This document shows positions 110 to 15,530 of a stretch of 64,000 nucleotides of DNA, one piece after another. Position numbers and translations under genes: made by a program. Every line of letters starts with the position of its first letter. Position 1 is the stretch's first letter. Below the pieces are notes generated by a model that did no database searches, was not told where the DNA came from, and saw nothing but the letters and a program-made list of their open reading frames with translations. The DNA comes from Ignavibacteria bacterium (GTDB lineage: Bacteria; Bacteroidota; Ignavibacteria; Ignavibacteriales; SURF-24), in assembly GCA_025612245.1 (NCBI GenBank), contig JAAXKQ010000023.1, positions 1-64,000 of the forward strand, read 5' to 3'.

Positions 110-1654
110 TCACAGCGGAATATTCGAATGTTTCTTTCCGGGATTAGAATCCACTTTTGTCTTTAAAAGCTGAAACGCATTTATGAGTCTAATCTTTGTT
201 TCCGAAGGAATTATCACGTCATCGACGTATCCCCTTTCAGCCGCCACATAAGGGTTTGCAAACTTATCTATATATTCAGAAAGTTTCTGTGCCGCCTTTT
301 CGGCAGGGTTTTCCGATTCGGATATTTCTTTCTTAAAGATGATCTCGACAGCCCCTTTGGGCCCCATGACAGCAATTTCGGCAGAAGGCCATGCAAAATT
401 AAAGTCACCCCGAACGTGCTTTGAGTTCATTACGTCGTAGGCTCCGCCGTATGCTTTCCTGGTTATTACGGTAACCTTTGGAACGGTAGCCTCGCAGAAA
501 GCAAAAAGAAGTTTTGCGCCGTGCTTGATTATACCATTCCACTCCTGTTCTGTTCCCGGAAGAAAGCCCGGAACATCTTCCAAAACGAGCAAGGGAATAT
601 TGAACGCATCACAAAACCTCACGAACCTCGCACCTTTAACCGAAGCCGCAATATCGAGAACGCCCGCAAGAACCCTTGGCTGGTTGGCAACAATGCCCAT
701 TGACATCCCGCCGATCCTTCCGAAACCCACTATCAGGTTTTCAGCATAATTTTTATGAACCTCAAAAAAATCACCGTTATCCACCAGGAGATTTATTATC
801 TCCTTCATGTCGTAAGGCCTGTTCGGATTGTCTGGAACAATTTCATTCAGCTTTGGAACCGACAGATCCGCCTTAAAGTCGAACTCCATTTCCGGCGCGG
901 TGTCCCTGTAATTCAAAGGCAGAAAACTCATGAGTTTTCTAATGCCCTCAAAGATTTCCACCTCGTTTTCCATTGCAAAGTGGGCTACACCGCTCTTTGA
1001 AGCGTGTGTTTCCGCACCGCCAAGGTCCTCGAAACTAACCTCCTCATGAGTAACCGTCTTTACAACGCCGGGTCCTGTAAGGAACATATGGCTTGTATGT
1101 TTGACCATGAAGATAAAATCAGTAATTGCAGGAGAATAAACCGCGCCTCCTGCGCAGGGCCCCAGTATAGCCGAGATCTGTGGAATTACACCGGAGGAAA
1201 GGGTGTTCCTGAGAAATATTTCAGCATAGCCGCCAAGGCTTACCACCCCTTCCTGTATCCTGGCACCCCCGGAGTCGTTCAGGCCAATAACGGGAATTCC
1301 CACCTTGAGCGCCAGATCCATGATCTTACAGATCTTCTCAGCGTGTGCCTCGGAAAGAGAGCCCCCGAAGACCGTAAAATCCTGGCTGAAGAGTGCAACC
1401 GGGCGCCCTTCGATCTTTGCAAATCCCGTAACGACACCATCACCCGGGTACTGCTGCTTATCCAGGCCGAAGTCCTTCGAACGGTGTTTTACGAAGATGT
1501 CGACCTCCTCGAAGCTACCTTCATCCACAAGCAGCTCTATTCTCTCCCTTGCTGTCAGCTTGCCCTTGTCGTGCTGGTTTTGGATCTTCTCCGGGCCTCC
1601 CCCGAGAAGAGCGGCAGCTTTAAGTTCCTTTAGCTTTTCAATTTTACCGTCCAT
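110..1654 (-). CDS. acyl-CoA carboxylase carboxyltransferase (beta) subunit, MmdA/PccB family
   Basis: This 514-residue protein is full length for the carboxyltransferase subunit of propionyl-CoA carboxylase or sodium-pumping methylmalonyl-CoA decarboxylase. It moves a carboxyl group between biotin and an acyl-CoA. Two crotonase-fold halves are visible: the N-terminal half has the GGARIQEG and [12 protein letters not shown] acyl-CoA/oxyanion-hole motifs, and the C-terminal half has the biotin-side [10 protein letters not shown] and [16 protein letters not shown] motifs. The start is ATG at 1654 behind a weak AAAGAG. No biotin carboxylase or biotin-carrier gene is in the window, although a gene may begin just downstream at the left edge. 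Whether it carboxylates propionyl-CoA or decarboxylates methylmalonyl-CoA cannot be decided from this subunit alone. Confidence 0.93.
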
Positions 1655-1749: not shown

Positions 1750-2493
1750 TTATGAATAAAAGAACAATTCTATTTCAGCCCTCATTCCAAAGAACTCATC
1801 ATCAACAGGAATGCCTGCAGTACTCCTTTTCGCGGGGTGGAATTCTCTTACAATTCTTCCCGACTTCTGCTCCTGCAGAAGTATCCTGTCGGAAATTAAC
1901 ATTGCCCCGGTTATGTCGGTAGTAGCCCAGAGGACGCCAAAATCCCCCTTGCTCATGATTTGCCTTATCAGCTTATAATAATCCATCTTTCTTTCCGGCA
2001 AAAGCTCCCTTAAGGGGTCATCCATTAAGATCAGCTTGGGCTCCATAGCCATTGCACGCGCGAGTGCTATCCTGAACCTGAAACCTGTACTTTTATTTGC
2101 CGGAATGTGCTTTTCATACCCATTAAGTCCTACTGCCTGCGTAAACTTCCTTACCGTCTCCGTGTCCTGCTCCTGCCCCGCTCTCATTCCGAGCCTAATA
2201 TTTTCCTCCACGCTAAGCCATGGCAAGGCCGAAGGCTCCGAAGGAATGAAAGCCGCATCGGTCTTTACTTCCTGAAACTGCCCGTATGTAACAGAACCCG
2301 AGTCAGGAGTTTCAATGCCTGCAAGGATCTTAAGCAGCGTGCTTTTTCCTGATGCCGGAGGCCCCAGTATGGTCAAAAGCTCCCCTTTGAGCACCTCAAA
2401 ACCGGTTTCACCGATTATGCTTAATGCGCCTGCCGGGCTAATATATCTTTTAGATATCTTCTCAGCCTTCAAGATGAAGTCATTCTCTGCCAA
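1750..2493 (-). CDS. ABC transporter ATP-binding protein with degenerate catalytic motifs
   Basis: The 247-residue protein has the layout of NitT/TauT-type ABC ATPases. The Walker A motif is intact (GPPASGKST, residues 44-52) and ALPWLSVEENIRLG resembles the post-Q-loop region of that family. Other catalytic positions are changed. The Q-loop Gln is Ser (FIPSEP, about residue 85). The signature LSGGQ reads KSTGF (134-138). The Walker B catalytic Glu is Asp (LMDDP, D159). The switch His is Thr (ATTDI, T192). It may bind ATP but hydrolyse it poorly, or act as a regulatory subunit. The start is TTG at 2493, immediately after the permease stop (TAATTG) and six bases behind GGGAG inside the permease gene, which suggests translational coupling. 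No substrate-binding protein is adjacent. Confidence 0.8.
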   Translation of the reverse strand: MAENDFILKAEKISKRYISPAGALSIIGETGFEVLKGELLTILGPPASGKSTLLKILAGIETPDSGSVTYGQFQEVKTDAAFIPSEPSALPWLSVEENIRLGMRAGQEQDTETVRKFTQAVGLNGYEKHIPANKSTGFRFRIALARAMAMEPKLILMDDPLRELLPERKMDYYKLIRQIMSKGDFGVLWATTDITGAMLISDRILLQEQKSGRIVREFHPAKRSTAGIPVDDEFFGMRAEIELFFYS

Positions 2494-3255
2494 TTAAATC
2501 TCCCACGTTATAACTTTCCTTTTTAAGAGCTTTAATACGTACTCTCCAAGAGCAATTATTAAGCCAGAGAGCACCGAAATGGCAACAAGCCCCGAAATAT
2601 CGTTAAATGAAAGGGCAAGCCTGTAAATGTTACCGATACCCATGTAAGCTTTTACATACTCAAAGAACAACACTATGCTCCAAAGGCGGATGTTCAGCCT
2701 CTGCAAAGAGCTGAATAAGGAGGGCTTAACGCTTTGCCAGTAAATATTCTTATAAAGGAAGGAATCCTCCTTTTTCAATGCGATAAAGGGCTCTATATAC
2801 GACCGTTTGACTTTGCCAAGATCCCGTGAGATTACGTTCAGAAGATAACCCAGAGCAAGCAAAAAGGTAAATAGTATCTCGGAGAGGTTTGAGACCGGAA
2901 ACCAATAAATATAGATAGTAATAAAAGAAATGGCGGTGAGATACCTGAAAAGCCTGATGGATTCGAGAAAATCCTTTGCCCTTAAAAGAAGTCCCGTTAC
3001 CCAAACCCTGAAAAGCCAGATAAGCCCGTAGGCCAGGACCATGGAAAGGTAAATTCCCGACGTGGTATAAAGCGCGTTTTTTAAGAATCCGTAGTGCATC
3101 TGCAGCGAGGGAAAGGATTCAAGGACAAGTGAGGGTCCGGGTAGAATTCTGCCGGGGGGAATTAAAAATTCAAAAATAAGGATATAGGCCAGTAAGTATG
3201 CCAGAAACCAGGCATACTTCCTCAGTTTTCTTTTTTCTGAAAAGTACTCACTCAT
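2494..3255 (-). CDS. ABC transporter permease, NitT/TauT-like
   Basis: This 253-residue integral membrane protein has about six hydrophobic segments, starting with one near residues 14-30 and another near 62-80. A polar stretch around residues 145-175 (RDLGKVKRSYIEPFIAL) occupies the place of the cytoplasmic coupling loop of binding-protein-dependent permeases, but the usual EAA...G sequence is weak. It is the first gene of a two-gene unit, and its stop abuts the ATPase start. The start is ATG at 3255 behind AAGGGAA. The substrate is unknown. Divergence from canonical permeases matches the degenerate partner ATPase, so the pair may be a non-classical or altered transporter. Confidence 0.7.
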   Translation of the reverse strand: MSEYFSEKRKLRKYAWFLAYLLAYILIFEFLIPPGRILPGPSLVLESFPSLQMHYGFLKNALYTTSGIYLSMVLAYGLIWLFRVWVTGLLLRAKDFLESIRLFRYLTAISFITIYIYWFPVSNLSEILFTFLLALGYLLNVISRDLGKVKRSYIEPFIALKKEDSFLYKNIYWQSVKPSLFSSLQRLNIRLWSIVLFFEYVKAYMGIGNIYRLALSFNDISGLVAISVLSGLIIALGEYVLKLLKRKVITWEI

Positions 3256-3336: not shown

Positions 3337-3978
3337 TCAGGCTAAAAAGGGATTACTTGTCTTCTCATGGCCGATGGTGCTCTTCTCTCCGTGTCCGGGG
3401 TATATTACGACGTCATCCGGAAGGCTGAAAAGCCTGGTCTCAATTGAATTTATGATAGCTTCATAATCCCCTCCCCAGAGGTCTGTTCTTCCGATCCCTT
3501 CCCTGAAGAGCGTGTCTCCGGTAAAGCAGATTTTATCGTCCTTAAAATAAAGGCAGTATCCTCCCGGTGAGTGCCCGGGTGTAAAAAGGAACTTCACCTC
3601 CCTGCCTCCAAGCTCGAAATGGAGGTCTTCCTTAATCAGCCTGTCGGGTAAAGGCGAGGCGTCCATCTTAAGGCCGAAGTTTACAGCCTCTTTCACCATC
3701 AGATCCAGCAAGAAGACGTCCTCTTCCGGCGCCAGGAACTCCGCATTATAGGTTTCCTTTAAGAATCGGTTTCCAAGTATGTGGTCCACGTGGCAATGCG
3801 TATTGAAAAAAGCCTTAAGCCTGAGGCCATTTTTCATGATGAAGGCGCTCAGTTCGTTTTTCTCCGTGGCGTCGCTGCAGCCGGGGTCAATAATAATGCA
3901 CTCTTTTGAAGCCCCGTCGGCAACTATGTAAGTGTTCTCTGAAATCAGGTTAAAAATAAATCGGTCAATTTTCAGCAT
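3337..3978 (-). CDS. MBL-fold metallo-hydrolase, glyoxalase II-like
   Basis: This 213-residue protein belongs to the metallo-beta-lactamase fold, in the hydroxyacylglutathione hydrolase-like group. The zinc motif THCHVDH is at residues 60-66 (H61, H63, D65, H66). Further ligands are in TPGHSPGG and FTGDTLF, and the terminal His motif is YPGHGEKS. Its length is typical of the short single-domain versions in anaerobes, which act on thioesters or persulfides. The start is ATG at 3978. It lies just downstream of aroC on the same strand, with an 18-bp gap, and may be co-transcribed. The substrate cannot be read from the sequence. Confidence 0.88.
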   Translation of the reverse strand: MLKIDRFIFNLISENTYIVADGASKECIIIDPGCSDATEKNELSAFIMKNGLRLKAFFNTHCHVDHILGNRFLKETYNAEFLAPEEDVFLLDLMVKEAVNFGLKMDASPLPDRLIKEDLHFELGGREVKFLFTPGHSPGGYCLYFKDDKICFTGDTLFREGIGRTDLWGGDYEAIINSIETRLFSLPDDVVIYPGHGEKSTIGHEKTSNPFLA

Positions 3979-3996: not shown

Positions 3997-5214
3997 TTAT
4001 CTGGAAAAGTTATCCGTTGTCCTCTTAAAGTCACGGTTTTTGAAGTTCATGAAATTTTCTTTTGTCTCCTGGATGGAATCGCCCCCGAACTTTTCCAGGA
4101 AGAACTTTGCAATTGACCAGGCCAGCATCGATTCTGCGATAACGGCGCAGGCTGGCACGGCCGTAAAGTCGCTCCTTTCGCGCCTTGCCTGGATTTCCCG
4201 CAACGTCGCGAGGTCCACGGTCCCGATCGGTGACATGAGTGTGGCAATAGGTTTCATTGCAGCCCTTACTATAATGGGGAGCCCTGTTGAGACACCGCCT
4301 TCTATACCCCCTGCCCTGTTGGTCTTTCTTGAAAAGCCGTTTTCCTGAAGAGTGATCTCGTCGTGGAACTCGGAGCCAAAGACTTCGGCGCTTCTAAAGC
4401 CATCGCCAATTTCCATGGCCTTAATGGCATTTATGGACATGATTGAGTGCGAGATTTCAGCACTGAGCTTCCTGTCGTAGTGCACAAAGCTTCCAAGTCC
4501 CTGCGGCACCCCCGTAGCAACGGCGTAGAAAGTGCCCCCAAGTGTGTCGCCGTTTTTCTTTACCGTTTGAATCTTGCTCTTAATTTTTTCTTCCTGCTCT
4601 TCTTCAAGCACCCTGACTTCGCTTTTATCGGACAGCGCAGAAAGTTTCCAGGCGTCAAAATCCTGAGGCAGGTCGTTCTCAAAGAGTTTACGGGAGAAGC
4701 TATCTACAGGATAAATACCGCCTATGCTTTCGACGAAGCTTCCGACCTTAATTCCAAACTCCTCAAGGAATTTTCTTGCAATGGAGCAGGCGGCAACGCG
4801 CGCGGCGGTTTCCCTGGCGCTGCTGCGTTCAATTGAATTCCTGATGTCGTCGAAAGCGTACTTCTGAGTTCCAACCAGGTCGGCGTGGCCGGGCCTGGGA
4901 ACGCTGATCTTTTCGACTTCCGTCTGATCTTCGGTTTTCCCGGACGCCATCTTACCGGTCCAGTTCTTCCAGTCCCTGTTTTCAATCATAATTGTAATTG
5001 GAGACCCGAGGGTTTTGCCGAACCTTACGCCCGAGAGGAATTCGGCCTCATCAGTTTCAATTTTCATTCTGCCGCCGCGGCCATAACCCATCATGCGTCT
5101 TTTCAGATGGGAATTTATGTAATCAATATCTAGTTCAAGGTTAGACGGGAAGCCATCAATAATTGCAGCAAGAGCTTTACCGTGCGATTCGCCCGAAGTC
5201 AAAAACCTGATCAT
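3997..5214 (-). CDS. aroC: chorismate synthase
   Basis: This 405-residue protein catalyses the last step of the shikimate pathway, 5-enolpyruvylshikimate-3-phosphate to chorismate, using reduced FMN. The N-terminal SGESHGKALAAIIDGFP motif, the basic RRMMGYGRGGRM segment and the SARETAARVA motif are family signatures. The C-terminal part carries the RAGGIEGGVSTG motif. The length fits the longer bacterial type. The start is ATG at 5214 behind AGGA. No other shikimate genes lie nearby. It begins a minus-strand run that continues into the MBL hydrolase. Confidence 0.97.
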   Translation of the reverse strand: MIRFLTSGESHGKALAAIIDGFPSNLELDIDYINSHLKRRMMGYGRGGRMKIETDEAEFLSGVRFGKTLGSPITIMIENRDWKNWTGKMASGKTEDQTEVEKISVPRPGHADLVGTQKYAFDDIRNSIERSSARETAARVAACSIARKFLEEFGIKVGSFVESIGGIYPVDSFSRKLFENDLPQDFDAWKLSALSDKSEVRVLEEEQEEKIKSKIQTVKKNGDTLGGTFYAVATGVPQGLGSFVHYDRKLSAEISHSIMSINAIKAMEIGDGFRSAEVFGSEFHDEITLQENGFSRKTNRAGGIEGGVSTGLPIIVRAAMKPIATLMSPIGTVDLATLREIQARRERSDFTAVPACAVIAESMLAWSIAKFFLEKFGGDSIQETKENFMNFKNRDFKRTTDNFSR

Positions 5215-5671: not shown

Positions 5672-5709
5672 CCATGATTGATCATTAAGACCACATTTTA
5701 CTTCATAAG
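5643..5709. repeat. 67-bp direct repeat, copy 1 (3' end of secreted gene plus hairpin)
   Basis: Positions 5643-5709 match 7882-7948 at 65 of 67 bases without gaps. The repeat covers the terminator hairpin, the spacer to the stop codon and the last four codons. The two genes differ far more in most of their coding sequence. This copy has the T-run needed for termination; the other does not. Confidence 0.9.
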
Positions 5710-7722
5710 TAACATTTTTTGTGAACTGACAAAATTGCCGGCTTCAATCCTGTAAATATAGCATCCGCTTGGAACTGACTCACCCAAGTCATTCTTTCCA
5801 TTCCAAATAATTGACTTATTGCCAGCTTCCTGAAAACCATTTACCAAGGTTTTTATCTCCTGTCCTAACATATTGTATACTTTCAGGATTACTTTTGAAT
5901 TTTCCTTAAGCGAATAAGTTATGTTTGTTGTTGGATTAAATGGATTTGGATAATTTTGGCCAAGTTTAAATTCCTTCGGATCTTCAGCTACTGTATTGTT
6001 ATTTCCTTTGAATATTACTGTGTTTGAACAGCTGTAAATTTCTAGTTCATTTACCATTAAATTCGAGGTTTTAGATTGTGGGACAATTACAATTCTTAAA
6101 AATTGTCCATCCGATGGGGTGTCCGCACTTACAAAATATGCTGCCAGATAGTAATAATATGGACTATTAGAATCGAATAAATCACTATATCCTTTAAATA
6201 GGGGATAATAATCTTTCATTTCTCCGAGTTTTTTCCAACTCCCATCAGAGCCGTCTTTTGAAATATATACTTTTAAATTTTCCGGATATAAAATATTATA
6301 GTCCCTATGTGCTGTGAAAATTGCGGAAACATCACTGACTGGTTTTACCGAACCAAGATCTACCTTAATTATAACTGAATCATTGTAGCTTGAGTTATAA
6401 TTAGGATTTATAATAAACCCAACCAATTTATCGTCATGCCATGAAATTCGACTTTGCTGTACAACATCTCCATCTTTAAGTTTAGTGCCATTATCTGGAT
6501 AAGATGGATTTGGGAGAATATTACCTTCATATGAATATGTAAAACTATCGTACCAATTTCCTATTCCTCTATACTTTGCATTGTAACCTCTTAATAAATG
6601 TACTTTCCCCTTATTCAATAAATTATTAGCGGTATCAAATGCTGGATATTCTGTCATAAATTCATTTTGCCAGGTTACCAGTGTAGCATTTTCAGCAAAA
6701 TTCTTCTCGATATTTAATTGTTGGCTTACCAATTTAATGAAAGACGGTGTATTATATGAAGTGGGTTTAATATTGGGATTTGACTCAGTAGGCCAGGCAT
6801 AACTACTATTAGGGCCGGGACCTGTTTGCCAAAGCTCAGGTTGAATCCAGAATGCAACATGTGGAGAGGAAGCAGCCAGCCCCGCTTTTATTGCTCCCAA
6901 ATAATCTGTAAGTGAATAGTACTGCGAATCTATTTTATTTACTGGCATTTCCCATCCACCAACACCGTCTTCAAACAAGAAATTGTCAATTCCTACTGAT
7001 GGAGTTCCGGTAAACATGTTTTGAATCCATTGGGTTACTTCTGATGGGGTCTTATATTCCTTCCAAGTATAAACATTTTTTAACTGATTCAAATACCCGC
7101 ACATAACGATTTTTTTATCAGGATCAGCTTCTTTAATTTTTGAAGTTACTTTGTGATAAAAATTTCTTAAATCTTGCTCAATTGGAAATGGCGGCATAAT
7201 TTCCATCTCTTGAAAAACATAGTATCCTGCAATTTTATTAATAACGCTAGTTGAATTACGCAGTTCCTCAATTAAGGAAGAATCGGCATGAGCGATTCCA
7301 CTATCCGGATTTGTGTGATTATATGGTTTTCGTAAATACCCATCAGGATCAGATAAGTCCACGGCACATAACCCCAAATATATTTCCATATTATGCGATT
7401 TAGCTATATCTACCATCCAGCTTAACTCACTATTCTGTACAGTCCTTGGGCAGTCTCCTATATGTGTCATCTTTTCAATAGCATTAATGATTATTATTTT
7501 GCAACCCATACGTTCTAATTCTGACATATAATCTGCAAATTTTGCTTTTGAGGTATATTGTAGTCCCCAATAACAATCAATCATTGTCCCGGTAATGGGT
7601 CCGGATGTCTGTGGGAAAGTTTGAGATGGAGCTATCATATTGAAAAGTAGCAATGCGTAAAAGAAAATAAATTTGATTTTTCGCTGGTATAACAACAGCC
7701 AAGAGAAATAATAACGTTTCAT
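5698..7722 (-). CDS. type IX secreted protein, DUF4434/glycosidase-like barrel plus sorting domain
   Basis: This 674-residue protein has an N-terminal hydrophobic export signal (to about residue 39). Next comes a barrel-like region (about 44-390) opening with DCYWGLQYTSKAKFADYM and IIIINAIEKM, which resembles the DUF4434 group of putative glycoside hydrolases. A region at about 430-580 looks like a discoidin-type carbohydrate-binding fold (ends VNELEIYSC). A C-terminal type IX sorting domain (about 593-674) carries NYPNPFNPTTNI and ends in KMLLMK. It is probably exported and surface-attached or released. The catalytic role is inference; no catalytic residues could be assigned. The start is ATG at 7722 behind GAGG. 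Codons are visibly richer in A/T than in neighbouring genes. A paralogue lies directly upstream. Confidence 0.82.
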   Translation of the reverse strand: MKRYYFSWLLLYQRKIKFIFFYALLLFNMIAPSQTFPQTSGPITGTMIDCYWGLQYTSKAKFADYMSELERMGCKIIIINAIEKMTHIGDCPRTVQNSELSWMVDIAKSHNMEIYLGLCAVDLSDPDGYLRKPYNHTNPDSGIAHADSSLIEELRNSTSVINKIAGYYVFQEMEIMPPFPIEQDLRNFYHKVTSKIKEADPDKKIVMCGYLNQLKNVYTWKEYKTPSEVTQWIQNMFTGTPSVGIDNFLFEDGVGGWEMPVNKIDSQYYSLTDYLGAIKAGLAASSPHVAFWIQPELWQTGPGPNSSYAWPTESNPNIKPTSYNTPSFIKLVSQQLNIEKNFAENATLVTWQNEFMTEYPAFDTANNLLNKGKVHLLRGYNAKYRGIGNWYDSFTYSYEGNILPNPSYPDNGTKLKDGDVVQQSRISWHDDKLVGFIINPNYNSSYNDSVIIKVDLGSVKPVSDVSAIFTAHRDYNILYPENLKVYISKDGSDGSWKKLGEMKDYYPLFKGYSDLFDSNSPYYYYLAAYFVSADTPSDGQFLRIVIVPQSKTSNLMVNELEIYSCSNTVIFKGNNNTVAEDPKEFKLGQNYPNPFNPTTNITYSLKENSKVILKVYNMLGQEIKTLVNGFQEAGNKSIIWNGKNDLGESVPSGCYIYRIEAGNFVSSQKMLLMK

Positions 7723-7881: not shown

Positions 7882-7948
7882 AAGGCAGAAGTCCCAATTA
7901 GGGGCCTCTGCCATGATGGATCAGTAAGACCACATTTTACTTCATAAG
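7882..7948. repeat. 67-bp direct repeat, copy 2 (hairpin without T-run)
   Basis: This is the second copy of the segment at 5643-5709, with two mismatches. It contains the same GGCAGA...TCTGCC hairpin after the stop codon of the upstream paralogue. On the minus strand the stem is followed by TTGGATAATAG instead of a T-run. Termination is therefore likely weak, and transcription may continue into the downstream paralogue. Confidence 0.88.
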
Positions 7949-9976
7949 AAGCATTTTCTGGGCTTTTACAAAGTTTCCGGCTTTGATTTGATATATATAA
8001 ATACCAGTAGGTACTACCATTCCATCGTTATCGGTACCATTCCAGGTAACAATTTTGCTGCCTGCAGGTTGAACTTCATCCACAATAGTTTTTATCTCCT
8101 TACCCAGTACATTATATACCTTTAATATAACGTGAGAGTTTTCCTTGATAGAATACTGAATATTAGTCGTCGGATTAAATGGATTTGGATAATTTGGAAG
8201 CAAGCAATTCTCATGAGGAATTGCCTCACTAGTTCCGTTTTGAAGGTTCTTTTTATCCTTCAGCAAGGTTCCTCCTAATGAGCTCGAAAATACTTCAATT
8301 TCGCTCAACGTAAGCCAACTCCATTTTCTGGGATATATGCGAATGTCAACAAATTGACCTTTTTTGGGTTCATCTTTGTCTATAAAAAACATTGCACGAG
8401 AAGAATGCCCCAGATTGTTTGGGACTGATATTGAATCTGAATACTCCAATAATTTGTAATTAGAGAGCGAAGTATTATATCCCATTTGTGCTGAAGTCCC
8501 TAATAAATTTCGAGGTTCAGTTATAACGCTAATAGTATCTGAAACAAATACTTTAAAACTGTCAGGATAAACAAGCGGAGGATTTGAACAAGATAGGGCC
8601 ATAAAGGAAACATCGGTAACAGGTTGATTAGAATGTTTTAAATCAACAATAATGTCAATAGGAATAACTGTTGAATCTGGTGTTATAAATCCTACCCATT
8701 TAGTCATCCAATCACCATACCAGTCAGCAAATACCCGTTCCTGCCCAAAATTTCCATCTAATAGTTTTCTAGTATTCGGGTCAAGAAAGTCACCACTTGG
8801 TTTTACTGTTCCAAATGTGTAAGACATACTTAATGGGTCATTTGTACCGTCATAATATTTCCCCTTACCCTGATAAATAGCCCTGTAACCTTTGTATAAA
8901 AATACCGCGCCGAGTGAATCAAACCTTCTTGCGTTTGTACTCTCCCAAGTCCAGGGGATTCTATGCTTGGTCATATTACCCTGGTTTATCCAGCTGATGA
9001 TTCCTTCATTTGTAGCGTAACGGCTATCGTAGTATAATTGTTCATTCATCTGCCTTACCATCACCGGTCCCGTAAAGTTGGATTCCCATTTATCATGTTT
9101 AATTCCTGACCATTGGAATATTTCTGTATTTATCCAAAATTCTGTTGTCCTGAATGTTATGGGAGTATTTATATAAGCATTATTGAACGCTTCCTTGGCC
9201 TTTCTTAAATAATCATCAAGATAAAATCCATTCTCGTTAAGAATTGGAGTATCAAACGAACCCACTCCATCCTGCAATATAAAAATATCAGGATGGCATC
9301 CATTTAAGAAAGTTGCAACAGAATTACCTATTTCATCCGGGTTTCTGGGTGAAGTCCTATTTCCCTCTAAAGGATCAAAATAACCCGAAATAACAAATTT
9401 TTTATCAGTCCCATACGTAATTGTCGAATCGAATTGCCTGTATGTCGCTAAAATATCATTATAGTCAGCCAATGTATAATCGGCTCCTGGAGTCCCAACA
9501 TTCCCATCCCGTCCTATTTCTCCGGCAACACCAAATTCAAACGGGGCATAATAACCCTTTAAATGATTCCTTGTCTCAGGCGTCAATTTTTGTACATACT
9601 CTTTACCATATTGACAAAGGCTATTCCTGACGGGTTGTACCCAAAACTGCTGGTTATTAGTGTATAGTCCAAGGTAAATGTCCATTTTGGGATTTGCCAC
9701 CACTGCATCATTTATCATATTTTCAATCAGTGTTTGAGAAACGTCTTCTTTAGGCACTCCATTTGCATCAACACTACCTATGTTTTGTATAATAATCTTT
9801 GTAATACCAAGCGAGTCTAATTCCGTCAACAATTCCTTATATTCATTGTAATTAGATTCGTTGTACATTTGAGCCGATATATATGTCCCATTAATATAAT
9901 TAATCCTTATTTGAGCGTTTAATCCCATATTAAGAAAAAGTAAGGACAGGAGAACAATAGTAAGATTAGTTTTCAT
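7937..9976 (-). CDS. type IX secreted protein, paralogue of the adjacent DUF4434-like protein
   Basis: This 679-residue protein has the same architecture as its downstream neighbour: a signal peptide (about 1-22, ending LNAQ), a barrel-like region opening INYINGTYISAQMYNE with TKIIIQNIGSV, a discoidin-like region (ends LSEIEVFSS), and a C-terminal sorting domain with NYPNPFNPTTNI and KMLLMK at the end. I chose ATG at 9976 over TTG at 9982 because GAAGGA lies eight bases upstream of the ATG. The function is probably hydrolysis or binding of an extracellular polysaccharide, by analogy with DUF4434 proteins. The gene is A/T-rich like its partner. The pair probably arose by tandem duplication followed by divergence. 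Confidence 0.82.
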   Translation of the reverse strand: MKTNLTIVLLSLLFLNMGLNAQIRINYINGTYISAQMYNESNYNEYKELLTELDSLGITKIIIQNIGSVDANGVPKEDVSQTLIENMINDAVVANPKMDIYLGLYTNNQQFWVQPVRNSLCQYGKEYVQKLTPETRNHLKGYYAPFEFGVAGEIGRDGNVGTPGADYTLADYNDILATYRQFDSTITYGTDKKFVISGYFDPLEGNRTSPRNPDEIGNSVATFLNGCHPDIFILQDGVGSFDTPILNENGFYLDDYLRKAKEAFNNAYINTPITFRTTEFWINTEIFQWSGIKHDKWESNFTGPVMVRQMNEQLYYDSRYATNEGIISWINQGNMTKHRIPWTWESTNARRFDSLGAVFLYKGYRAIYQGKGKYYDGTNDPLSMSYTFGTVKPSGDFLDPNTRKLLDGNFGQERVFADWYGDWMTKWVGFITPDSTVIPIDIIVDLKHSNQPVTDVSFMALSCSNPPLVYPDSFKVFVSDTISVITEPRNLLGTSAQMGYNTSLSNYKLLEYSDSISVPNNLGHSSRAMFFIDKDEPKKGQFVDIRIYPRKWSWLTLSEIEVFSSSLGGTLLKDKKNLQNGTSEAIPHENCLLPNYPNPFNPTTNIQYSIKENSHVILKVYNVLGKEIKTIVDEVQPAGSKIVTWNGTDNDGMVVPTGIYIYQIKAGNFVKAQKMLLMK

Positions 9977-9982
9977 CAGCAA

Positions 9983-10440: not shown

Positions 10441-11934
10441 TTAAGGGATCGAAAGCCCGACATAGCGTGAATTGCCCTGCCCGTCAATTACTTTCAGCAA
10501 AACCGCCTGCCCTTTCTTGCCTTCAATTGCCTTTTCAAAATCGCCGACAGAATTTATGTTTTTCTTACCTACCTGCGTTATAACCAGTCCTTTTCCAAGT
10601 CTCTGGTCGTAAGCACGGCTAAGTTCCTTTACGTCCTGTATCATTACGCCGTTACCCGTCTTGTATGCATCCTTTTCATCGCCAGTCATGTCTCTTACGG
10701 TAAGGCCAATGTTATCAAAGGTCATCGTGTTCGAGGGACCTTTCTTGGGCCTGTCCGGTGTGTTTTCCTCGGAAGCAGGTTCAACCTTGCTGTTCGTATC
10801 CCTGGTCTTTAATGTTACAGTGCGTTCAATCTGCTTGCCGTCGCGCCAGATAGTAAGCGTAACCTTGTCGCCTGCGCTCTTTGAAGCAACGTAGCTCTGG
10901 AGTTCACCGGCTTCATTTACCTCGCGCCCGTCGACCTTAAGTATTATATCCTGTTCCTTGATGTCCGCTTTTTCAGCAGCCCCGCCTTTTGTAAGAGCCT
11001 GAACCATAATGCCGCGCGCCTTATCGAGCCCTACAGCATTGGCCGTCGCGGGATCTACCGGCGTTATCTGGACTCCGATGTATCCGCGGTTGACCTTTCC
11101 GGTTGCAATGAGCTCCTTGGAAACGTTCTTAGCCAGGTTAATTGGAATTGCGAAGCCGTAGCCGATGTAGCTGTTGGACATGCCTGAGGTGGCAATGGCA
11201 GAGTTAATGCCTATAACCGCCCCCGAAAGGTCTACCAATGCGCCGCCGCTGTTACCAGGATTGATTACGGCGTCGGTCTGCAGAAAGTCCTCAATTTCGC
11301 CGCCCGAGTTGTCCTTTATGATTCCAATGTTTCTTCCCTTGGCGCTAATGATTCCGGCTGTTACCGTGGAGGCCAAAGACAACGGGTTTCCGATTGCCAT
11401 AACCCACTGCCCGACCTTTACGTTATCCGAATTGCCGAGGTATGCCACCGGAAGGCCCGAGGCATCTATTTTTATTACGGCAAGGTCTGTCTGGGGATCA
11501 GTCCCAACAACCTTTGCCTCAAAGGTCCGCCTGTCGAAAAGGCTTACTTCAACTTTTGTGGCGTTTTCAACCACGTGATTGTTTGTCAGTATATATCCGT
11601 CGTCGGAAATTATAACGCCGCTGCCGGAACCCATTTCTTTTCTTGGAGTATCATCTTTAAACGGAAAGAAAAACGGGAAGTCCTCGTGCGGATTACTTTT
11701 GCTTTCCGAGACTACGGCAATTTGAACAATTGTTGGAGTAACTTTTTCGGCTACTTCAATAAAGGCCTTGCTGAAAGCGTTGACGTCGATGTCGGTAATG
11801 GGTGGATTTTTTGCGCCAATTGTAATGTCTGCCAACCCCGGTCTAACCCAGCCAAAACCTGAAACCAGAACCGCCCCAAATATGACTCCTATAATAACTA
11901 AAGCAACTGTACCGAATAAGTTTCTGTTTTTCAT
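10441..11934 (-). CDS. Do/DegQ-family periplasmic serine endopeptidase (HtrA)
   Basis: This 497-residue HtrA-family protease degrades or refolds misfolded envelope proteins. An N-terminal hydrophobic segment (about 8-30) exports or anchors it. The trypsin-like domain has the triad H120 (TNNHVVEN), D150 (TDLAVIKI) and S229 (NPGNSGGA). Two PDZ domains follow, at roughly 280-370 and 405-495, the second after a proline- and charge-rich linker. The length matches DegP/DegQ. The start is ATG at 11934 behind a strong AGGAGG. It has its own terminator and stands as a single-gene unit, although recO lies 62 bp upstream on the same strand. Confidence 0.95.
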   Translation of the reverse strand: MKNRNLFGTVALVIIGVIFGAVLVSGFGWVRPGLADITIGAKNPPITDIDVNAFSKAFIEVAEKVTPTIVQIAVVSESKSNPHEDFPFFFPFKDDTPRKEMGSGSGVIISDDGYILTNNHVVENATKVEVSLFDRRTFEAKVVGTDPQTDLAVIKIDASGLPVAYLGNSDNVKVGQWVMAIGNPLSLASTVTAGIISAKGRNIGIIKDNSGGEIEDFLQTDAVINPGNSGGALVDLSGAVIGINSAIATSGMSNSYIGYGFAIPINLAKNVSKELIATGKVNRGYIGVQITPVDPATANAVGLDKARGIMVQALTKGGAAEKADIKEQDIILKVDGREVNEAGELQSYVASKSAGDKVTLTIWRDGKQIERTVTLKTRDTNSKVEPASEENTPDRPKKGPSNTMTFDNIGLTVRDMTGDEKDAYKTGNGVMIQDVKELSRAYDQRLGKGLVITQVGKKNINSVGDFEKAIEGKKGQAVLLKVIDGQGNSRYVGLSIP

Positions 11935-11996
11935 TCTAAAAAACCTCCTGGTTTTCCTGTTTCATCCTATATTTTCATGATCTAAAAATATTGTGT

Positions 11997-12737
11997 CTAA
12001 AACAAGTGAATAGATTTTATCCCCTTGAATTCAGGAACGTGGTATTTTAAGTATTTTTCCAGGAAATTCAGCGTATTATCTATTTCTCCGGAAGGAATTT
12101 TCTCCTCGCTCCTTATGTCACTTAGACCAGTAATAATTTGAAAAAGTTCCGGCGAAAGTAATATGGAACTGCTTACTTCATGCCTGCATGAAGGGCATAC
12201 AATCCCCCGTTCAAAATTAAAACTGTAGCCTGAAGCGCCCATCGTAATCGGATTGCCGCATATGCTGCACTGATCGAATTGGATCTCGAAGCCGCTTTCC
12301 TTCAGGAGAAAAACAATAAACTTTATGAGCAGTATGCCGGGCTTTCTTTCGGATGATTCAAAAAGGCTGAGCATTTTTACAAGACCTCGGAAAAGCTTTT
12401 GATTCGCCTCTTCTTCAACCGTAAGTGCAAGTGTAAGTTCAAGGACTGCCGAGGCGTACTTGAGTTTCTGGAGGTCTTCTTTGATCCTCGGGAAATAAGA
12501 GATGAGTTCAGCCTGACTTATAAGCTGCATATCGCGCCCGGTCTTTTTATACATTACGATCTGCAGGTGGTTAAATGAATCGATCTTATGGCCGACGGGC
12601 GACTTTGGTTGGCGTGCGCCTTTGATGATACCTGAAATCCTGCCCAGGTCTTTCGTGTAAAAAGTGGCAATTGTACTGCTTTCACGGTAGTTCATCTTGC
12701 TCAAGACTACCGCTTCAGTTTTGATTATTTCGGACAT
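11997..12737 (-). CDS. recO: DNA repair protein RecO
   Basis: This 246-residue RecO works with RecR (and RecF) to load RecA on gapped or SSB-coated DNA. The N-terminal OB fold starts IIKTEAVVLSKMNYRESS, a family hallmark. A helical domain follows with a four-Cys zinc site: C157, C160, C181 and C184 (CSIC and CPSC). The length is typical. The start ATG at 12737 overlaps the mtnA stop as TAATG, so it is probably translationally coupled in a pfkB-mtnA-recO operon. The functional link to those metabolic genes is not obvious. Confidence 0.93.
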   Translation of the reverse strand: MSEIIKTEAVVLSKMNYRESSTIATFYTKDLGRISGIIKGARQPKSPVGHKIDSFNHLQIVMYKKTGRDMQLISQAELISYFPRIKEDLQKLKYASAVLELTLALTVEEEANQKLFRGLVKMLSLFESSERKPGILLIKFIVFLLKESGFEIQFDQCSICGNPITMGASGYSFNFERGIVCPSCRHEVSSSILLSPELFQIITGLSDIRSEEKIPSGEIDNTLNFLEKYLKYHVPEFKGIKSIHLF

Positions 12738-13744
12738 TAAAAGTTATAAGGAGGTTTATAAAGTTTTTTATCTGTAATAATACCCGAAATCAGGCTCGAG
12801 GGAGTGACGTCAAATGCCGGGCAATAGGCCTCATATTCATCCGAGGTAATCCTGACATCCTTAAAGCAGGTCAGTTCATCCTTTCCCCTGAGTTCGATCT
12901 TTATGGCGCCGCCCTCCGGACAACTGCGGTCAACCGTGGTCTCAGGAGCAGCTATATAAAAAGGTATATTATGATATGCACAAAGAACAGCCAAATTATA
13001 AGTTCCTATCTTATTGGCCGTATCGCCGTTGAGTGCTATTCTGTCGGCGCCGGTAACTACAAGGTCAATTTTCTTCTGCTGCATGAGGAAAGCCGCCGTG
13101 GAGTCGGTATTCATGGCAAAAGGGACGTTGTATTTTTTTAGTTCGAAGGCTGTAAGCCTGGAGCCCTGGAAAAGGGGGCGGGTTTCATCGGAATAGACAA
13201 AGTCCACAAGGCCATGCTCAAATCCGGCTTTAATCACGTTAAGCGCCGTACCGCTGCCGCCTGTGGCAAGTGCACCGGCGTTGCAGTGCGTCAGAACGAC
13301 CGAGTGAGGCTTGAAAATCTCCAGTCCGTTGCGGGCAATGGCCTCGCATTTTTCAACGTCCTCCTGGTGGATTTCCCCGGCTTTATTAATAAGGCAGGTA
13401 TATAGGTCGCTCCTGCCAAAATTAAGCTCAAATGTTTCAGAAATTTCGTTTAGCGCCCAGAAGAGGTTTACTGCCGTAGGCCTGGTTGAGGCGAGCCTTT
13501 TTCTTGCGGCTTCAAAGGTTTCCCTCGGGTTTTGGGTCTTCCCTTTCAGGCTGAGCGCAAGTGCGTATGCTGCCGCCACACCAATAGCCGGAGCACCTCT
13601 GATTTCGAGTCTTTCAATTGCCCCGGCAATTACTTCATAACTGTCGGTCTTTACGTACTCTTCAATAAGAGGAAGCCTGGTCTGGTCGAGATAGACCAGG
13701 CTATCGCCAATAAACTCTACCGCCCGGATGCCGGTTTTTGCCAT
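12737..13744 (-). CDS. mtnA: S-methyl-5-thioribose-1-phosphate isomerase
   Basis: This protein of about 335 residues converts methylthioribose-1-phosphate to methylthioribulose-1-phosphate in methionine salvage. It has the eIF2B-like fold with signature motifs RGAPAIGVAAAYALAL, HCNAGALATGGSGTAL (active-site Cys) and VTGADRIALNGD (catalytic Asp). I chose ATG at 13744 because it follows the pfkB stop by a few bases with AAGAGAA upstream. A TTG at 13768 would add eight Thr/Lys-rich residues and a 17-bp overlap. No other salvage genes (mtnB, mtnD, mtnK) are nearby, but the adjacent PfkB kinase may belong to the same pathway. Confidence 0.94.
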   Translation of the reverse strand: MAKTGIRAVEFIGDSLVYLDQTRLPLIEEYVKTDSYEVIAGAIERLEIRGAPAIGVAAAYALALSLKGKTQNPRETFEAARKRLASTRPTAVNLFWALNEISETFELNFGRSDLYTCLINKAGEIHQEDVEKCEAIARNGLEIFKPHSVVLTHCNAGALATGGSGTALNVIKAGFEHGLVDFVYSDETRPLFQGSRLTAFELKKYNVPFAMNTDSTAAFLMQQKKIDLVVTGADRIALNGDTANKIGTYNLAVLCAYHNIPFYIAAPETTVDRSCPEGGAIKIELRGKDELTCFKDVRITSDEYEAYCPAFDVTPSSLISGIITDKKLYKPPYNF

Positions 13745-13751
13745 ATTTCTC

Positions 13752-14669
13752 TTAGTCGTCGTCGTCAACCCTGGATAACTTCAAAAATTCCCTAAACCTG
13801 TCGTGAACCTGCAGGTAGGTGAGGTTTTCAAGTCCCTTGGTACTGAAGCGCTCAACGCAGAAAGAGGCCATCGTGCTGCCGAAGACAACCGCACGCTTAA
13901 GGTTTTCTATGCCGATATCCTGTGTTTTGTGCAGGTAGCCTACAAAGCCTCCTGCAAATGAGTCGCCTGCTCCCGTGGGGTCATAAATATTCTCAAGAGG
14001 ATAAGCAGGTGCTGAGAATACGGTATTGTCGCAAAACAGGAGTGCTCCGTGTTCCCCTTTTTTAATTATGAGGTATTCCGGACCCATGGCCCTTATCAGA
14101 CGGGCTGCTTTAATCAGGTTTGGCTCCTGTGCAAGGAGGCGGGCTTCGGAATCATTTATAATGAGCACCTGAACTTTTTTCAGGACCTTAAGAAGTTCAG
14201 CCTTCTTTCCTTCTATCCAGAAATTCATCGTGTCGCAGATCACAAAGCTCGGGTTTTCCATCTGCTCCAGGACCTTGAGCTGTAAGGTCGGGTCAATGTT
14301 GCCAAGCAGTACAAACCTGGATTTTCTGTATTTTTCCGGGATTACCGGGTCAAAGGTTGCCAGTACGTTAAGTTCAGTTAAAAGAGTATCACGCACGTTC
14401 AGGTCATAATGATATTTACCCGACCAGCGGAAAGTCTTTGCACCGTCGACCATTTTAAGACCTTCCAGATCGATGTTATGGTCTTCAAGGAGCTTAATAT
14501 GCTCCCTGTCAAAATCTTCTCCTACCACTCCAACCATGTAGACAGGCCCGCTGAAGTAACTGGCGGCTAAGGATATGTAAACAGCTGATCCGCCCAAGGC
14601 ATTATCGATTCTGTCAAAAGGCGTTGCAACCGTATCAAGCGCAACAGATCCGACTATTAATAAACCCAC
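13752..14669 (-). CDS. PfkB-family sugar or nucleoside kinase
   Basis: This 305-residue kinase has the ribokinase fold. The N-terminal GSVALDTVATP and NALGGSAVYISLAA segments form the substrate side. The C-terminal DPTGAGDSFAGGF motif (residues 230-242, catalytic D236) forms the anion hole. The start is GTG at 14669 behind GGGAG. The C terminus is strongly acidic (RVDDDD). It is the first gene of a likely operon with mtnA and recO, which suggests a substrate linked to methylthioadenosine or nucleoside salvage. Canonical methylthioribose kinase (MtnK) is a different fold, so that role is only a hypothesis. Confidence 0.88.
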   Translation of the reverse strand: MGLLIVGSVALDTVATPFDRIDNALGGSAVYISLAASYFSGPVYMVGVVGEDFDREHIKLLEDHNIDLEGLKMVDGAKTFRWSGKYHYDLNVRDTLLTELNVLATFDPVIPEKYRKSRFVLLGNIDPTLQLKVLEQMENPSFVICDTMNFWIEGKKAELLKVLKKVQVLIINDSEARLLAQEPNLIKAARLIRAMGPEYLIIKKGEHGALLFCDNTVFSAPAYPLENIYDPTGAGDSFAGGFVGYLHKTQDIGIENLKRAVVFGSTMASFCVERFSTKGLENLTYLQVHDRFREFLKLSRVDDDD

Positions 14670-14830
14670 TTACTACTCCCTGATTTTTATTTAGATGTTC
14701 TGCAAAACTAAGCTATTATCCGATCAAAAGAAACAAAAAATGAATTCTCCGGGAAGTTCTTAGGCGGATTTTTTCATGCCCTTTCAGGACCTAAAACCAA
14801 GGAATCTGCATCTTAGGCTTCTTTGCAAAG

Positions 14831-15343
14831 TCAGACCGAGGAAGTCTTACCAAAGGCATGAAAGTTTCTGTCGCGGCACTTTTTAAGGCTGATTTCTTCA
14901 AAGTAAAGGAAGCTTTTCTCCTTTGTGAAATATTCGCAGATAATCTCTACGGATGTCTTCTGCCCCGGCCAGGCCAATAACTCCAGCGCTTTTTCCCGGC
15001 TTACCCACTGGTATTCAGAGTGCTCGTGGGATATCTTAACCTGTGTATCGCCGGGAACCATGGCAACAAAGACCGGCACCATGCAGATGTGGTTCCTCCT
15101 CCATGAATAAAAGGAATTAATGTATGGAACAAGCCAAAGCTTTTCCGGAACAATGCCGGTTTCTTCCCTAATTTCCCTGAACGCGGTTTCAAAAGCCCTT
15201 TCCCCCTGGTCAATTGAACCCGTTACCATCTGCCATAAGCCCGGAAATATCTCCATTTCAGAACGCTTCAGGAGCAGAAACTCCAGTTTTTTATTCACTT
15301 CCCTGAAAATGTGGGCTTCAACCATGTATGAGAGTACTTTCAC
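14831..15343 (-). CDS. Nudix hydrolase
   Basis: This protein of about 170 residues hydrolyses a nucleoside diphosphate linked to some other group. The Nudix box GSIDQGE...REIREETGI fits the G-x5-E-x7-REUxEExGU pattern exactly. I chose GTG at 15343 because GGAG lies seven bases upstream and the family N terminus (VKVLSYMVEAHIF) starts there. A longer frame reaching 15517 would add 58 basic, Cys-rich residues unlike the family. It resembles dihydroneopterin triphosphate or dATP pyrophosphatases, but the substrate is not determinable. It is transcribed divergently from the tRNA-Leu/tig unit. Confidence 0.88.
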   Translation of the reverse strand: MKVLSYMVEAHIFREVNKKLEFLLLKRSEMEIFPGLWQMVTGSIDQGERAFETAFREIREETGIVPEKLWLVPYINSFYSWRRNHICMVPVFVAMVPGDTQVKISHEHSEYQWVSREKALELLAWPGQKTSVEIICEYFTKEKSFLYFEEISLKKCRDRNFHAFGKTSSV

Positions 15344-15530
15344 CCCTTTACTCCGAAATTTTATTTTAATATATGCTAAAATTCTGCATTTGGCAAAACA
15401 AAGTGCAAAGAAAGACAATTTTTTTCGCGCCTGTAAACCGGAATAAAACATATTCGGCTCAAAGACACGTTTTTTGTGTTTTTTTCGGCAAATTCTTCGT
15501 ATATTTTGGTCTTTCATTTTTGGCTCTTAC

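What the first reader, a model, noticed from the sequence alone, without database searches (positions are those of the whole stretch)
1750..3255. ABC module whose ATPase has lost the Q-loop Gln, catalytic Glu, signature and switch His
Walker A is intact, but the Q-loop reads FIPSEP, the signature KSTGF, Walker B ends in D159 and the switch His is T192. The frame is undamaged, coupling to a full-length permease is kept, and the permease coupling motif is also atypical. That points to a maintained but non-classical role (ATP-bound scaffold, regulatory channel, or a pair needing a second ATPase) rather than decay.
Basis: partly seen in the sequence, partly recalled or inferred. Interest (0 to 1): 0.55.

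Follow-up and report, generated by a model that had tools for sequence, protein, structure and literature searches.

The report
ABC pair with non-catalytic ATPase motifs
This is a bacterial membrane protein and its partner ATPase, inherited together by most examined members of one bacterial order, in which the ATPase has lost key parts of its engine while other parts, probably those that hold the membrane protein, are strictly kept, so it may work as a support or switch rather than as a pump.

Summary
In detail: ATPase (2493-1750, minus strand) and permease (3255-2494) are intact, adjacent genes with the motifs described. They are not a local oddity. The permease has matches in 99 of 146 genomes of one order (probably Ignavibacteriales); 97 of 99 fetched loci have an ATPase homologue beside it, and the other two end at a contig edge. 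Across 97 ATPases the switch His (0 of 96 with a letter) and first signature Gly (0 of 97) are absent, and the Q-loop Gln is present in 2. The catalytic Glu is kept in 54, so its loss here is lineage-specific. Walker A Lys is lost in 13 (at least 7 changes on a tree), while P84, W92, G125-Y126 and the GFRFRI helix stay. ATPase dN/dS is 0.07-0.24 in 18 close pairs: purifying selection, but weaker than on the carboxyltransferase next door. In nine genomes both genes are missing together from an otherwise intact gene string. Both subunits are nearest NrtBCD/CmpBCD-type anion importers; no binding protein is among the conserved neighbours. Best reading: a pseudo-ATPase that scaffolds or gates its permease. 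New variant of a known kind; function unproven.

The parts
1750..2493 (-). Degenerate ABC ATPase (pseudo-NBD), 247 aa, TTG start
   Evidence: Open frame; Pfam ABC_tran 6.5e-22; AlphaFold model mean pLDDT 93.4, nearest solved chain CmpC 9ua0_C Z 29.0, 242 residues at 2.4 A, tied with NrtC/NrtD chains; homologue beside the permease in 97 of 99 fetched relative loci
2494..3255 (-). Partner permease, 253 aa, NrtB/SsuC-like transmembrane subunit
   Evidence: Open frame; no Pfam hit; family profile hits NrtB 8w9m 2e-11 and CmpB 9u9z 6.3e-9; AlphaFold model mean pLDDT 92.7, nearest solved chain NrtB 8wm8_B Z 17.9, 249 residues at 4.3 A
2338..2364 (-). Walker A GPPASGKST (residues 44-52), intact here; Lys lost in 13 of 97 members
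   Evidence: coordinates computed from residue numbers
2215..2250 (-). Q-loop region FIPSEPSALPWL (residues 82-93), Ser at the Gln position; common family form [YF]IPxxPSSFPW
   Evidence: coordinates computed from residue numbers
2053..2130 (-). Block GLNGYEKHIPANKSTGFRFRIALARA (residues 122-147), among the most conserved parts of the family; contains the altered signature KSTGF
   Evidence: coordinates computed from residue numbers
2014..2034 (-). Walker B LILMDDP (residues 154-160) with Asp in place of the catalytic Glu
   Evidence: coordinates computed from residue numbers
1918..1920 (-). T192 at the switch-His position
   Evidence: coordinates computed from residue number
110..1654 (-). 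Carboxyltransferase, conserved downstream neighbour (context, not part of the pair)
   Evidence: Pfam Carboxyl_trans on a relative's copy
3337..3978 (-). Metallo-beta-lactamase-fold hydrolase, conserved upstream neighbour (context)
   Evidence: Pfam Lactamase_B on a relative's copy
3997..5214 (-). aroC (chorismate synthase; name recalled from sequence), conserved upstream neighbour (context)

Best explanation
A vertically inherited two-gene ABC module whose ATPase has become a pseudo-ATPase. The permease (NrtB/SsuC type) probably forms a homodimer held from the cytoplasm by two copies of the degenerate domain. The domain no longer drives an ordinary hydrolysis cycle; it is kept because its Q-loop and helical-subdomain region holds the permease's coupling helices and sets or senses the permease's state, so it acts as a scaffold or gate. 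In most members ATP may still bind and act as a switch; in lineages that lost Walker A it probably cannot. Shown here: the family-wide motif losses, the repeated loss of the ATP-binding Lys, the retained central block, purifying selection, and joint presence or absence of the pair. Inferred: homodimer, contact with the coupling helix, no productive hydrolysis. Unknown: what passes through or is signalled.
For: Of 97 members (window plus 96 loci): switch His 0 of 96 with a letter, first signature Gly 0, Gln 2, catalytic Glu 54, Walker A Lys 83. Ten comparison ATPases (nine of the own genome plus L146): Gln 9, first Gly 9, Glu 10, His 9 (choice explained in Tried and rejected). Walker A Lys needs at least 7 changes on a tree of 92 members, Glu 16. 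In the 13 members without Lys: Y126 13, S135 13, W92 12, F138 12, R141 12, Asp158 10, but Glu only 3, against Glu in 50 of the 83 that keep Lys. Among 47 members W92, G125, Y126 and F138 are invariant, and 13 of the 20 columns at 90% or more lie between residues 84 and 146. Conservation against 38 ordinary ATPases: residues 122-131 3.27 against 1.26 bits, 138-147 3.61 against 2.65; Glu159 2.88 against 4.32, Gln column 1.79 against 4.32, His column 2.37 against 4.15, D-loop 1.68 against 2.72. ATPase dN/dS 0.066-0.24 in 18 of 19 pairs, the other identical. ATPase homologue beside the permease in 97 of 99 loci. In 9 of 20 matchless genomes looked at (of 47) both genes are absent from an intact hydrolase-carboxyltransferase junction.
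Against: 50 of 97 members keep Walker A Lys and Ser/Thr and Walker B Asp and Glu, so slow hydrolysis is not excluded there. Signature Ser (90) and second Gly (92) are kept. Gln is present in 2 of 97, and by eye in 2 of 3 divergent copies outside that set (L252, L253). The contact with the coupling helix is inferred; no complex was modelled. The controls come from many phyla and ABC types and were picked by a pattern that demands Walker A and a signature, so they exaggerate the contrast; the averages over the Q-loop (80-86) and switch region (188-193) are no lower in the family (2.43 against 2.24, 2.84 against 2.68). P91-W92 is shared with NrtC and CmpD, so it is not special to the family. Between window and congener the ATPase is 54% identical and the carboxyltransferase 94%. 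One copy is split (L097), one permease has a stop (G090), and some genomes lack the module.
Confidence: 0.55

Rival explanations
1. It is still an ATP-driven importer with a re-wired, slower active site: the Ser and second Gly of the signature, Walker A and, in many members, the catalytic Glu suffice, and losses at Gln and His are tolerated.
For: 50 of 97 members keep Lys, Ser/Thr, Asp and Glu; S135 90 and G137 92 of 97. Both subunits fold like NrtBCD/CmpBCD.
Against: Window and its congener have lost Glu as well; 13 of 97 have no Walker A Lys, yet keep the central block, S135 included, so its conservation does not prove ATP contact. No binding protein among the conserved neighbours.
Confidence: 0.2
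2. The degenerate ATPase is one half of a heterodimeric ATPase; a canonical ATPase encoded elsewhere supplies the working site, as in transporters with one degenerate site.
For: NrtBCD and CmpBCD, the nearest solved complexes, use two ATPases (PMC13249358 passages). The own genome has 30 other ABC ATPase matches at E up to 0.001.
Against: No second ATPase homologue within 400 bases of the permease in 97 loci, apart from the two pieces of one gene in L097. Of the 30 others, 6 were scanned; their best models are MlaF, 2-aminoethylphosphonate (twice), LptB, heme and LolD types, and only the LptB one is over a curated cut-off. Whether any of them is an orphan was not checked. A site is built from Walker A/B, Q-loop and switch of one subunit and the signature of the other (PMC12038006 passages), so a mixed pair would still have one damaged half in each site.
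Confidence: 0.12
3. Slow decay: a transporter that lost its function in an ancestor within the order and is eroding, with whole-module deletion as the end point.
For: Repeated motif loss, whole-module absence in at least 9 genomes, split or stop-bearing copies (L097, G090), fast divergence in this genus, dN/dS above that of the carboxyltransferase in the pairs where both were measured.
Against: Open frames in all three related families; ATPase dN/dS 0.066-0.24, 0.14-0.24 in three pairs without the Lys; invariant W92, G125, Y126 and F138 among 47; Y126 and S135 kept in 13 of 13 Lys-less members.
Confidence: 0.1
4. A non-transporting regulator of the envelope in the manner of FtsEX (recalled), linked to the LysM/SLT lytic transglycosylase encoded downstream.
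For: That gene's cluster is found in 74 of 99 loci, in 62 of them three genes after the permease.
Against: The carboxyltransferase lies between them and other neighbours are unrelated housekeeping genes; the permease model is helices with short loops.
Confidence: 0.03

Closest known systems
NrtBCD nitrate/nitrite and CmpBCD bicarbonate importers (NitT/TauT type; SsuBC, TauBC)
   Same: Fold and sequence of both subunits: permease Z 17.9 to NrtB over 249 residues (4.3 A), ATPase Z 29.0 to CmpC over 242 (2.4 A); family profiles 2e-11 (permease to NrtB) and 4e-43 (ATPase to NrtC); the LPW-type segment after the Q-loop.
   Different: No binding protein among the conserved neighbours and no second ATPase beside the pair; Gln, first signature Gly and switch His lost almost throughout; Walker A Lys lost in 13 of 97; no Pfam permease hit.
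ABC transporters with one degenerate site (e.g. MsRv1273c/72c, PMC12038006; TM287/288 and TAP recalled)
   Same: Non-catalytic residues kept in an ABC ATPase.
   Different: Those keep one full site made with a canonical partner; here a single ATPase gene carries damage in both halves of the site.
CFTR and SUR1 (recalled): ABC proteins turned channel or regulator
   Same: ABC architecture used for gating rather than pumping, as proposed here.
   Different: Different transmembrane type, eukaryotic, ATP binding retained; no gating shown here.

Membership tests
NitT/TauT-type ABC importer (NrtBCD/CmpBCD/SsuBC) | Permease subunit homologous to NrtB/SsuC | tested here: met
   Profile A2 to NrtB 8w9m 2e-11; model Z 17.9; the single sequence reaches only 1.9e-4 to SsuC
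NitT/TauT-type ABC importer (NrtBCD/CmpBCD/SsuBC) | ATPase subunit homologous to NrtC/D, SsuB | tested here: met
   Profile A1 to NrtC 4e-43; model Z 29.0 to CmpC
NitT/TauT-type ABC importer (NrtBCD/CmpBCD/SsuBC) | Intact catalytic motifs (Gln, LSGGQ, Glu, switch His) | tested here: not met
NitT/TauT-type ABC importer (NrtBCD/CmpBCD/SsuBC) | Cognate periplasmic binding protein | tested here: inconclusive
   None among the conserved neighbours. In 59 genomes, 46 module-bearing: a strong match (PF13379 over cut-off, or PF09084 at about 69 bits or more, a line drawn after seeing the list) in 11 of 46; by the curated cut-offs alone 15 of 46 have neither family (the 15 counted by hand). The own genome has one PF09084 match, 39 bits, over the cut-off, beside another ATPase and permease. 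Other binding-protein families not searched
NCBIfam equivalogs SaoA, SsuB, TauB | Score over the curated cut-off | tested here: not met
   112.9 against 360, 112.6 against 395, 99.9 against 357 bits
Pfam BPD_transp_1 permease | Score over gathering cut-off | tested here: not met
   No Pfam match at E up to 1; window permease absent from the own-genome PF00528 list of 11
ABC transporter with one degenerate and one consensus site | A second, canonical ATPase subunit encoded with it | tested here: not met
   No second ATPase homologue within 400 bases of the permease, apart from the split gene of L097; partners encoded elsewhere not excluded
FtsEX-like murein regulator | Transmembrane subunit with a large periplasmic domain (recalled) | tested here: not met
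   Predicted model is helices with short loops
Pseudo-ATPase (loss of hydrolysis) | No ATP hydrolysis | not testable with these tools
   Sequence only

The most novel reading that the evidence does not exclude
An order-wide bacterial ABC module that has given up ATP hydrolysis, and in several lineages apparently ATP binding, while keeping the permease-holding surface: an ABC permease working without its engine, for example as a gated passive route for a small anion (its nearest relatives carry nitrate or bicarbonate, and it sits beside a carboxyltransferase gene) or as a membrane-bound sensor.
Probability: 0.4. Interest if true: 0.72.

Novelty: new variant of a known kind. Interest (0 to 1): 0.52.

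Why it matters
Degenerate ABC sites are usually discussed as one of a pair. A family with damage to both halves of the site in one gene, natural replicates that lost Walker A, and clean whole-module losses would let one ask directly what an ABC ATPase domain contributes besides hydrolysis. It also warns against naming such genes nitrate or sulfonate import ATPases.

Tried and rejected
A wide search for family members in named genomes used two patterns, one of which was the common Walker A helix, and brought 80 loci. L171 is the G085 contig (14,670 31-mers shared with L149). L198 (Ignavibacteriae IGN16) was read and is an ordinary ATPase. Of the other 78, 38 fitted a pattern for an ordinary ATPase; the rest were not examined. 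Class and phylum searches (samples of 294 and 395 genomes) gave permease matches below 1e-25 only inside the order; the weaker ones outside it were not examined.

Rows dropped. Comparison ATPases: nine own-genome proteins that translated well, plus L146. Left out were L015 (itself atypical, FMFPSF and LNRGE), L019 (a fragment) and the eight loci on the other strand (L002, L003, L004, L006, L008, L010, L011, L013), which that script did not read properly. L014 lacked Walker A in its piece and reads Glu and His at the Gln and first-Gly columns; L017 reads Gln at the His column: so single departures also occur in the controls. L146 was dropped from the family counts as an ordinary ATPase. Not in the tree: L145, L148, L126, L097, L078. 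A1 and A2 hold every second of 91 complete loci plus the window (A2 without L134). G124's second partial permease match was not fetched. The divergent copies L251-L253 are not in the 97.

The family tree with 12 ordinary ATPases did not show the family as one side of a branch (2 changes; long branches present), and the one-clade test did not finish and was not repeated. Common descent rests on gene order and shared motifs, not on that tree. Neighbour genes in the dN/dS table were picked by length. Only 20 of the 47 genomes without a match were looked at, the 20 that one search listed; for several of them the carboxyltransferase used as an anchor may be a paralogue. Bicarbonate and FtsEX-like roles were considered from the neighbours and kept only as speculation. 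Fold lists show nearest folds only.

Literature: listings with the starts of abstracts; passages of PMC12038006 and PMC13249358. Searches returned no paper, so the NrtBCD structure paper was not seen. No paper on this family turned up, which does not show that none exists.

Full report
What is there. Two intact genes lie head to tail on the minus strand: a permease of 253 aa (3255-2494) and an ABC ATPase of 247 aa (2493-1750) that starts directly after the permease's stop. Aligned with ordinary ATPases, the missing Gln is at residue 85 (Ser), the first signature Gly at 136 (Thr), the catalytic Glu at 159 (Asp) and the switch His at 192 (Thr). The signature Ser (135) and second Gly (137) are kept.

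It is a family. The permease finds matches in 99 of 146 genomes, the window's own included. I fetched 99 loci from the other 98. In 97 of them an ATPase homologue lies within 400 bases on the same strand; in the other two (L102, L110) the permease runs into a contig end. In a separate check of 17 genomes the best ATPase match lay beside the permease in all 17. One locus (L146) is an ordinary pair in a genome that also has the family copy. In samples of 294 genomes of the class and 395 of the phylum, matches below 1e-25 were seen only in this order.

Which losses are old. Over 97 members (window plus 96 loci, L146 dropped): switch His 0 (one gap); first signature Gly 0; Gln 2 (one gap); signature Ser 90; second Gly 92; Walker A Lys 83 (13 other letters, one gap); Walker B Asp 93; Glu 54; D-loop Asp 47. 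So loss of first Gly and His, and nearly always Gln, marks the family, while loss of Glu came in some lineages only, this genus among them: the members of the same family outside the genus (L052-L054) still read DEP. Three more divergent copies lie outside this count; two of them have a Gln by eye (L252, L253). On a tree built without the motif columns, Lys needs at least 7 changes and Glu 16 among 92 members.

What is conserved instead. In 47 members the invariant residues are W92, G125, Y126 and F138, and 13 of the 20 columns at 90% or more lie between 84 and 146. In the 13 members without Walker A Lys, Y126 and S135 are kept in 13, P84, W92, G137, F138 and R141 in 12, G125 and R139 in 11, but Glu in only 3, against 50 of 83. 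The ATP site erodes while this block is held; since S135 stays where Walker A has gone, its conservation need not mean ATP contact. A comparison with 38 ordinary ATPases points the same way for residues 87-98, 122-131 and 138-147 and for the single Gln, Glu and His columns and the D-loop, but not for the averages over the Q-loop and switch regions. Those controls are broad in phylum and type and were chosen by a pattern with Walker A and signature, so I weigh the within-family result more. P91-W92 is shared with NrtC and CmpD; G125-Y126 is not seen in those two. In ABC importers this part of the ATPase carries the groove that takes the permease's coupling helix (general knowledge, not tested here).

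Selection and inheritance. In 19 close pairs ATPase dN/dS is 0.066 to 0.24 in 18 (one pair identical) and permease dN/dS 0.027 to 0.285 where dS is finite. The 514-aa carboxyltransferase gives 0.024 to 0.077 in the 7 pairs where it varies and dS is finite; the other neighbours lie mostly in between. Three pairs without Walker A Lys give 0.14 to 0.24. Between window and congener dS is near saturation (2.2-2.4); dN is 0.37 for the ATPase, 0.23 for the permease, 0.16 for the hydrolase, 0.14 for aroC and 0.04 for the carboxyltransferase. Constraint is real but weaker than on the neighbours measured there. Gene order is conserved on one strand: NUDIX, PfkB, mtnA, RecO, HtrA, aroC, hydrolase, permease, ATPase, carboxyltransferase, LysM/SLT transglycosylase, TonB-plug protein; of 99 loci, many cut by contig ends, the carboxyltransferase cluster is in 85, the transglycosylase in 74, the hydrolase in 73 and aroC in 68 (Pfam on six of these proteins, other names recalled from sequence). 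Of 47 genomes without a match I looked at 20: 3 carry a more divergent module at the same place, 9 have the hydrolase followed directly by the carboxyltransferase, 1 has an unrelated DUF6588 gene there, 7 do not show the junction. None of the 20 stretches showed one gene of the pair alone among frames of 70 aa or more.

What it resembles. The permease model (mean pLDDT 92.7) is nearest NrtB and CmpB (Z 17.9 and 17.2, tied) and the ATPase model (93.4) nearest CmpC, NrtD and NrtC (Z 29.0 to 28.1, tied). Profiles agree. Those importers use a binding protein and two ATPases (PMC13249358, passages). Here no binding protein is among the conserved neighbours and no second ATPase lies beside the pair. 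In 59 genomes, 11 of 46 with the module and 8 of 13 without it have a strong NMT1-type match (PF13379 over cut-off or PF09084 at about 69 bits or more, a line drawn after seeing the list). By the curated cut-offs, 40 of 59 have some PF09084 match, the own genome included at 39 bits, and 15 of the 46 have neither family (counted). So a binding protein shared from elsewhere is not excluded in many of them.

How it most likely works. A site for ATP is made of Walker A, Walker B, Q-loop and switch of one subunit and the signature of the other (PMC12038006, passages). With one ATPase gene, both sites carry the same damage, and with a canonical partner each site would still hold one damaged half. 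I therefore think the domain no longer powers transport and serves as the cytoplasmic holder or gate of a permease dimer; in members with Walker A, ATP may bind as a switch. This is inference. Slow hydrolysis in the 50 members with Lys, Ser/Thr, Asp and Glu is the main rival. What passes through, or what is sensed, is unknown; bicarbonate is only a guess from the relatives and the carboxyltransferase next door.

Verdict. It is a new variant of the NitT/TauT ABC architecture, found in these samples in one order only.

Noticed in passing
window 5698-7722 and 7937-9982, minus strand: Two large proteins of similar layout (674 and 681 aa), probably secreted and ending in what looks like a type IX secretion sorting tail (recalled motif), sit in a low-GC stretch (34-37%) between aroC and HtrA, which are neighbours in most relative loci. 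Looks like an insertion into a conserved gene string.
   Followed up: partly
window 10441-15517, minus strand: HtrA, RecO, mtnA, PfkB and NUDIX genes (names from the relatives' clusters or recalled) follow in the same order as in relatives, so the window keeps the conserved gene string around the module.
   Followed up: yes
L252:448-1850 and L253:4575-5983: Divergent copies of the module: the permease lacks the N-terminal stretch and the ATPase reads NCQKAFPGLS at the Q-loop, so a Gln is present, with no switch His by eye.
   Followed up: partly
L015 (own genome G000:C35, 98709-99269): Another ABC ATPase of the same genome reads FMFPSF at the Q-loop and LNRGE at the signature, a second possibly degenerate ATPase.
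   Followed up: no
L248:2604-3680 and L253:3295-4443: A DUF6588 protein lies between the hydrolase and the carboxyltransferase or the module in two genomes.
   Followed up: no
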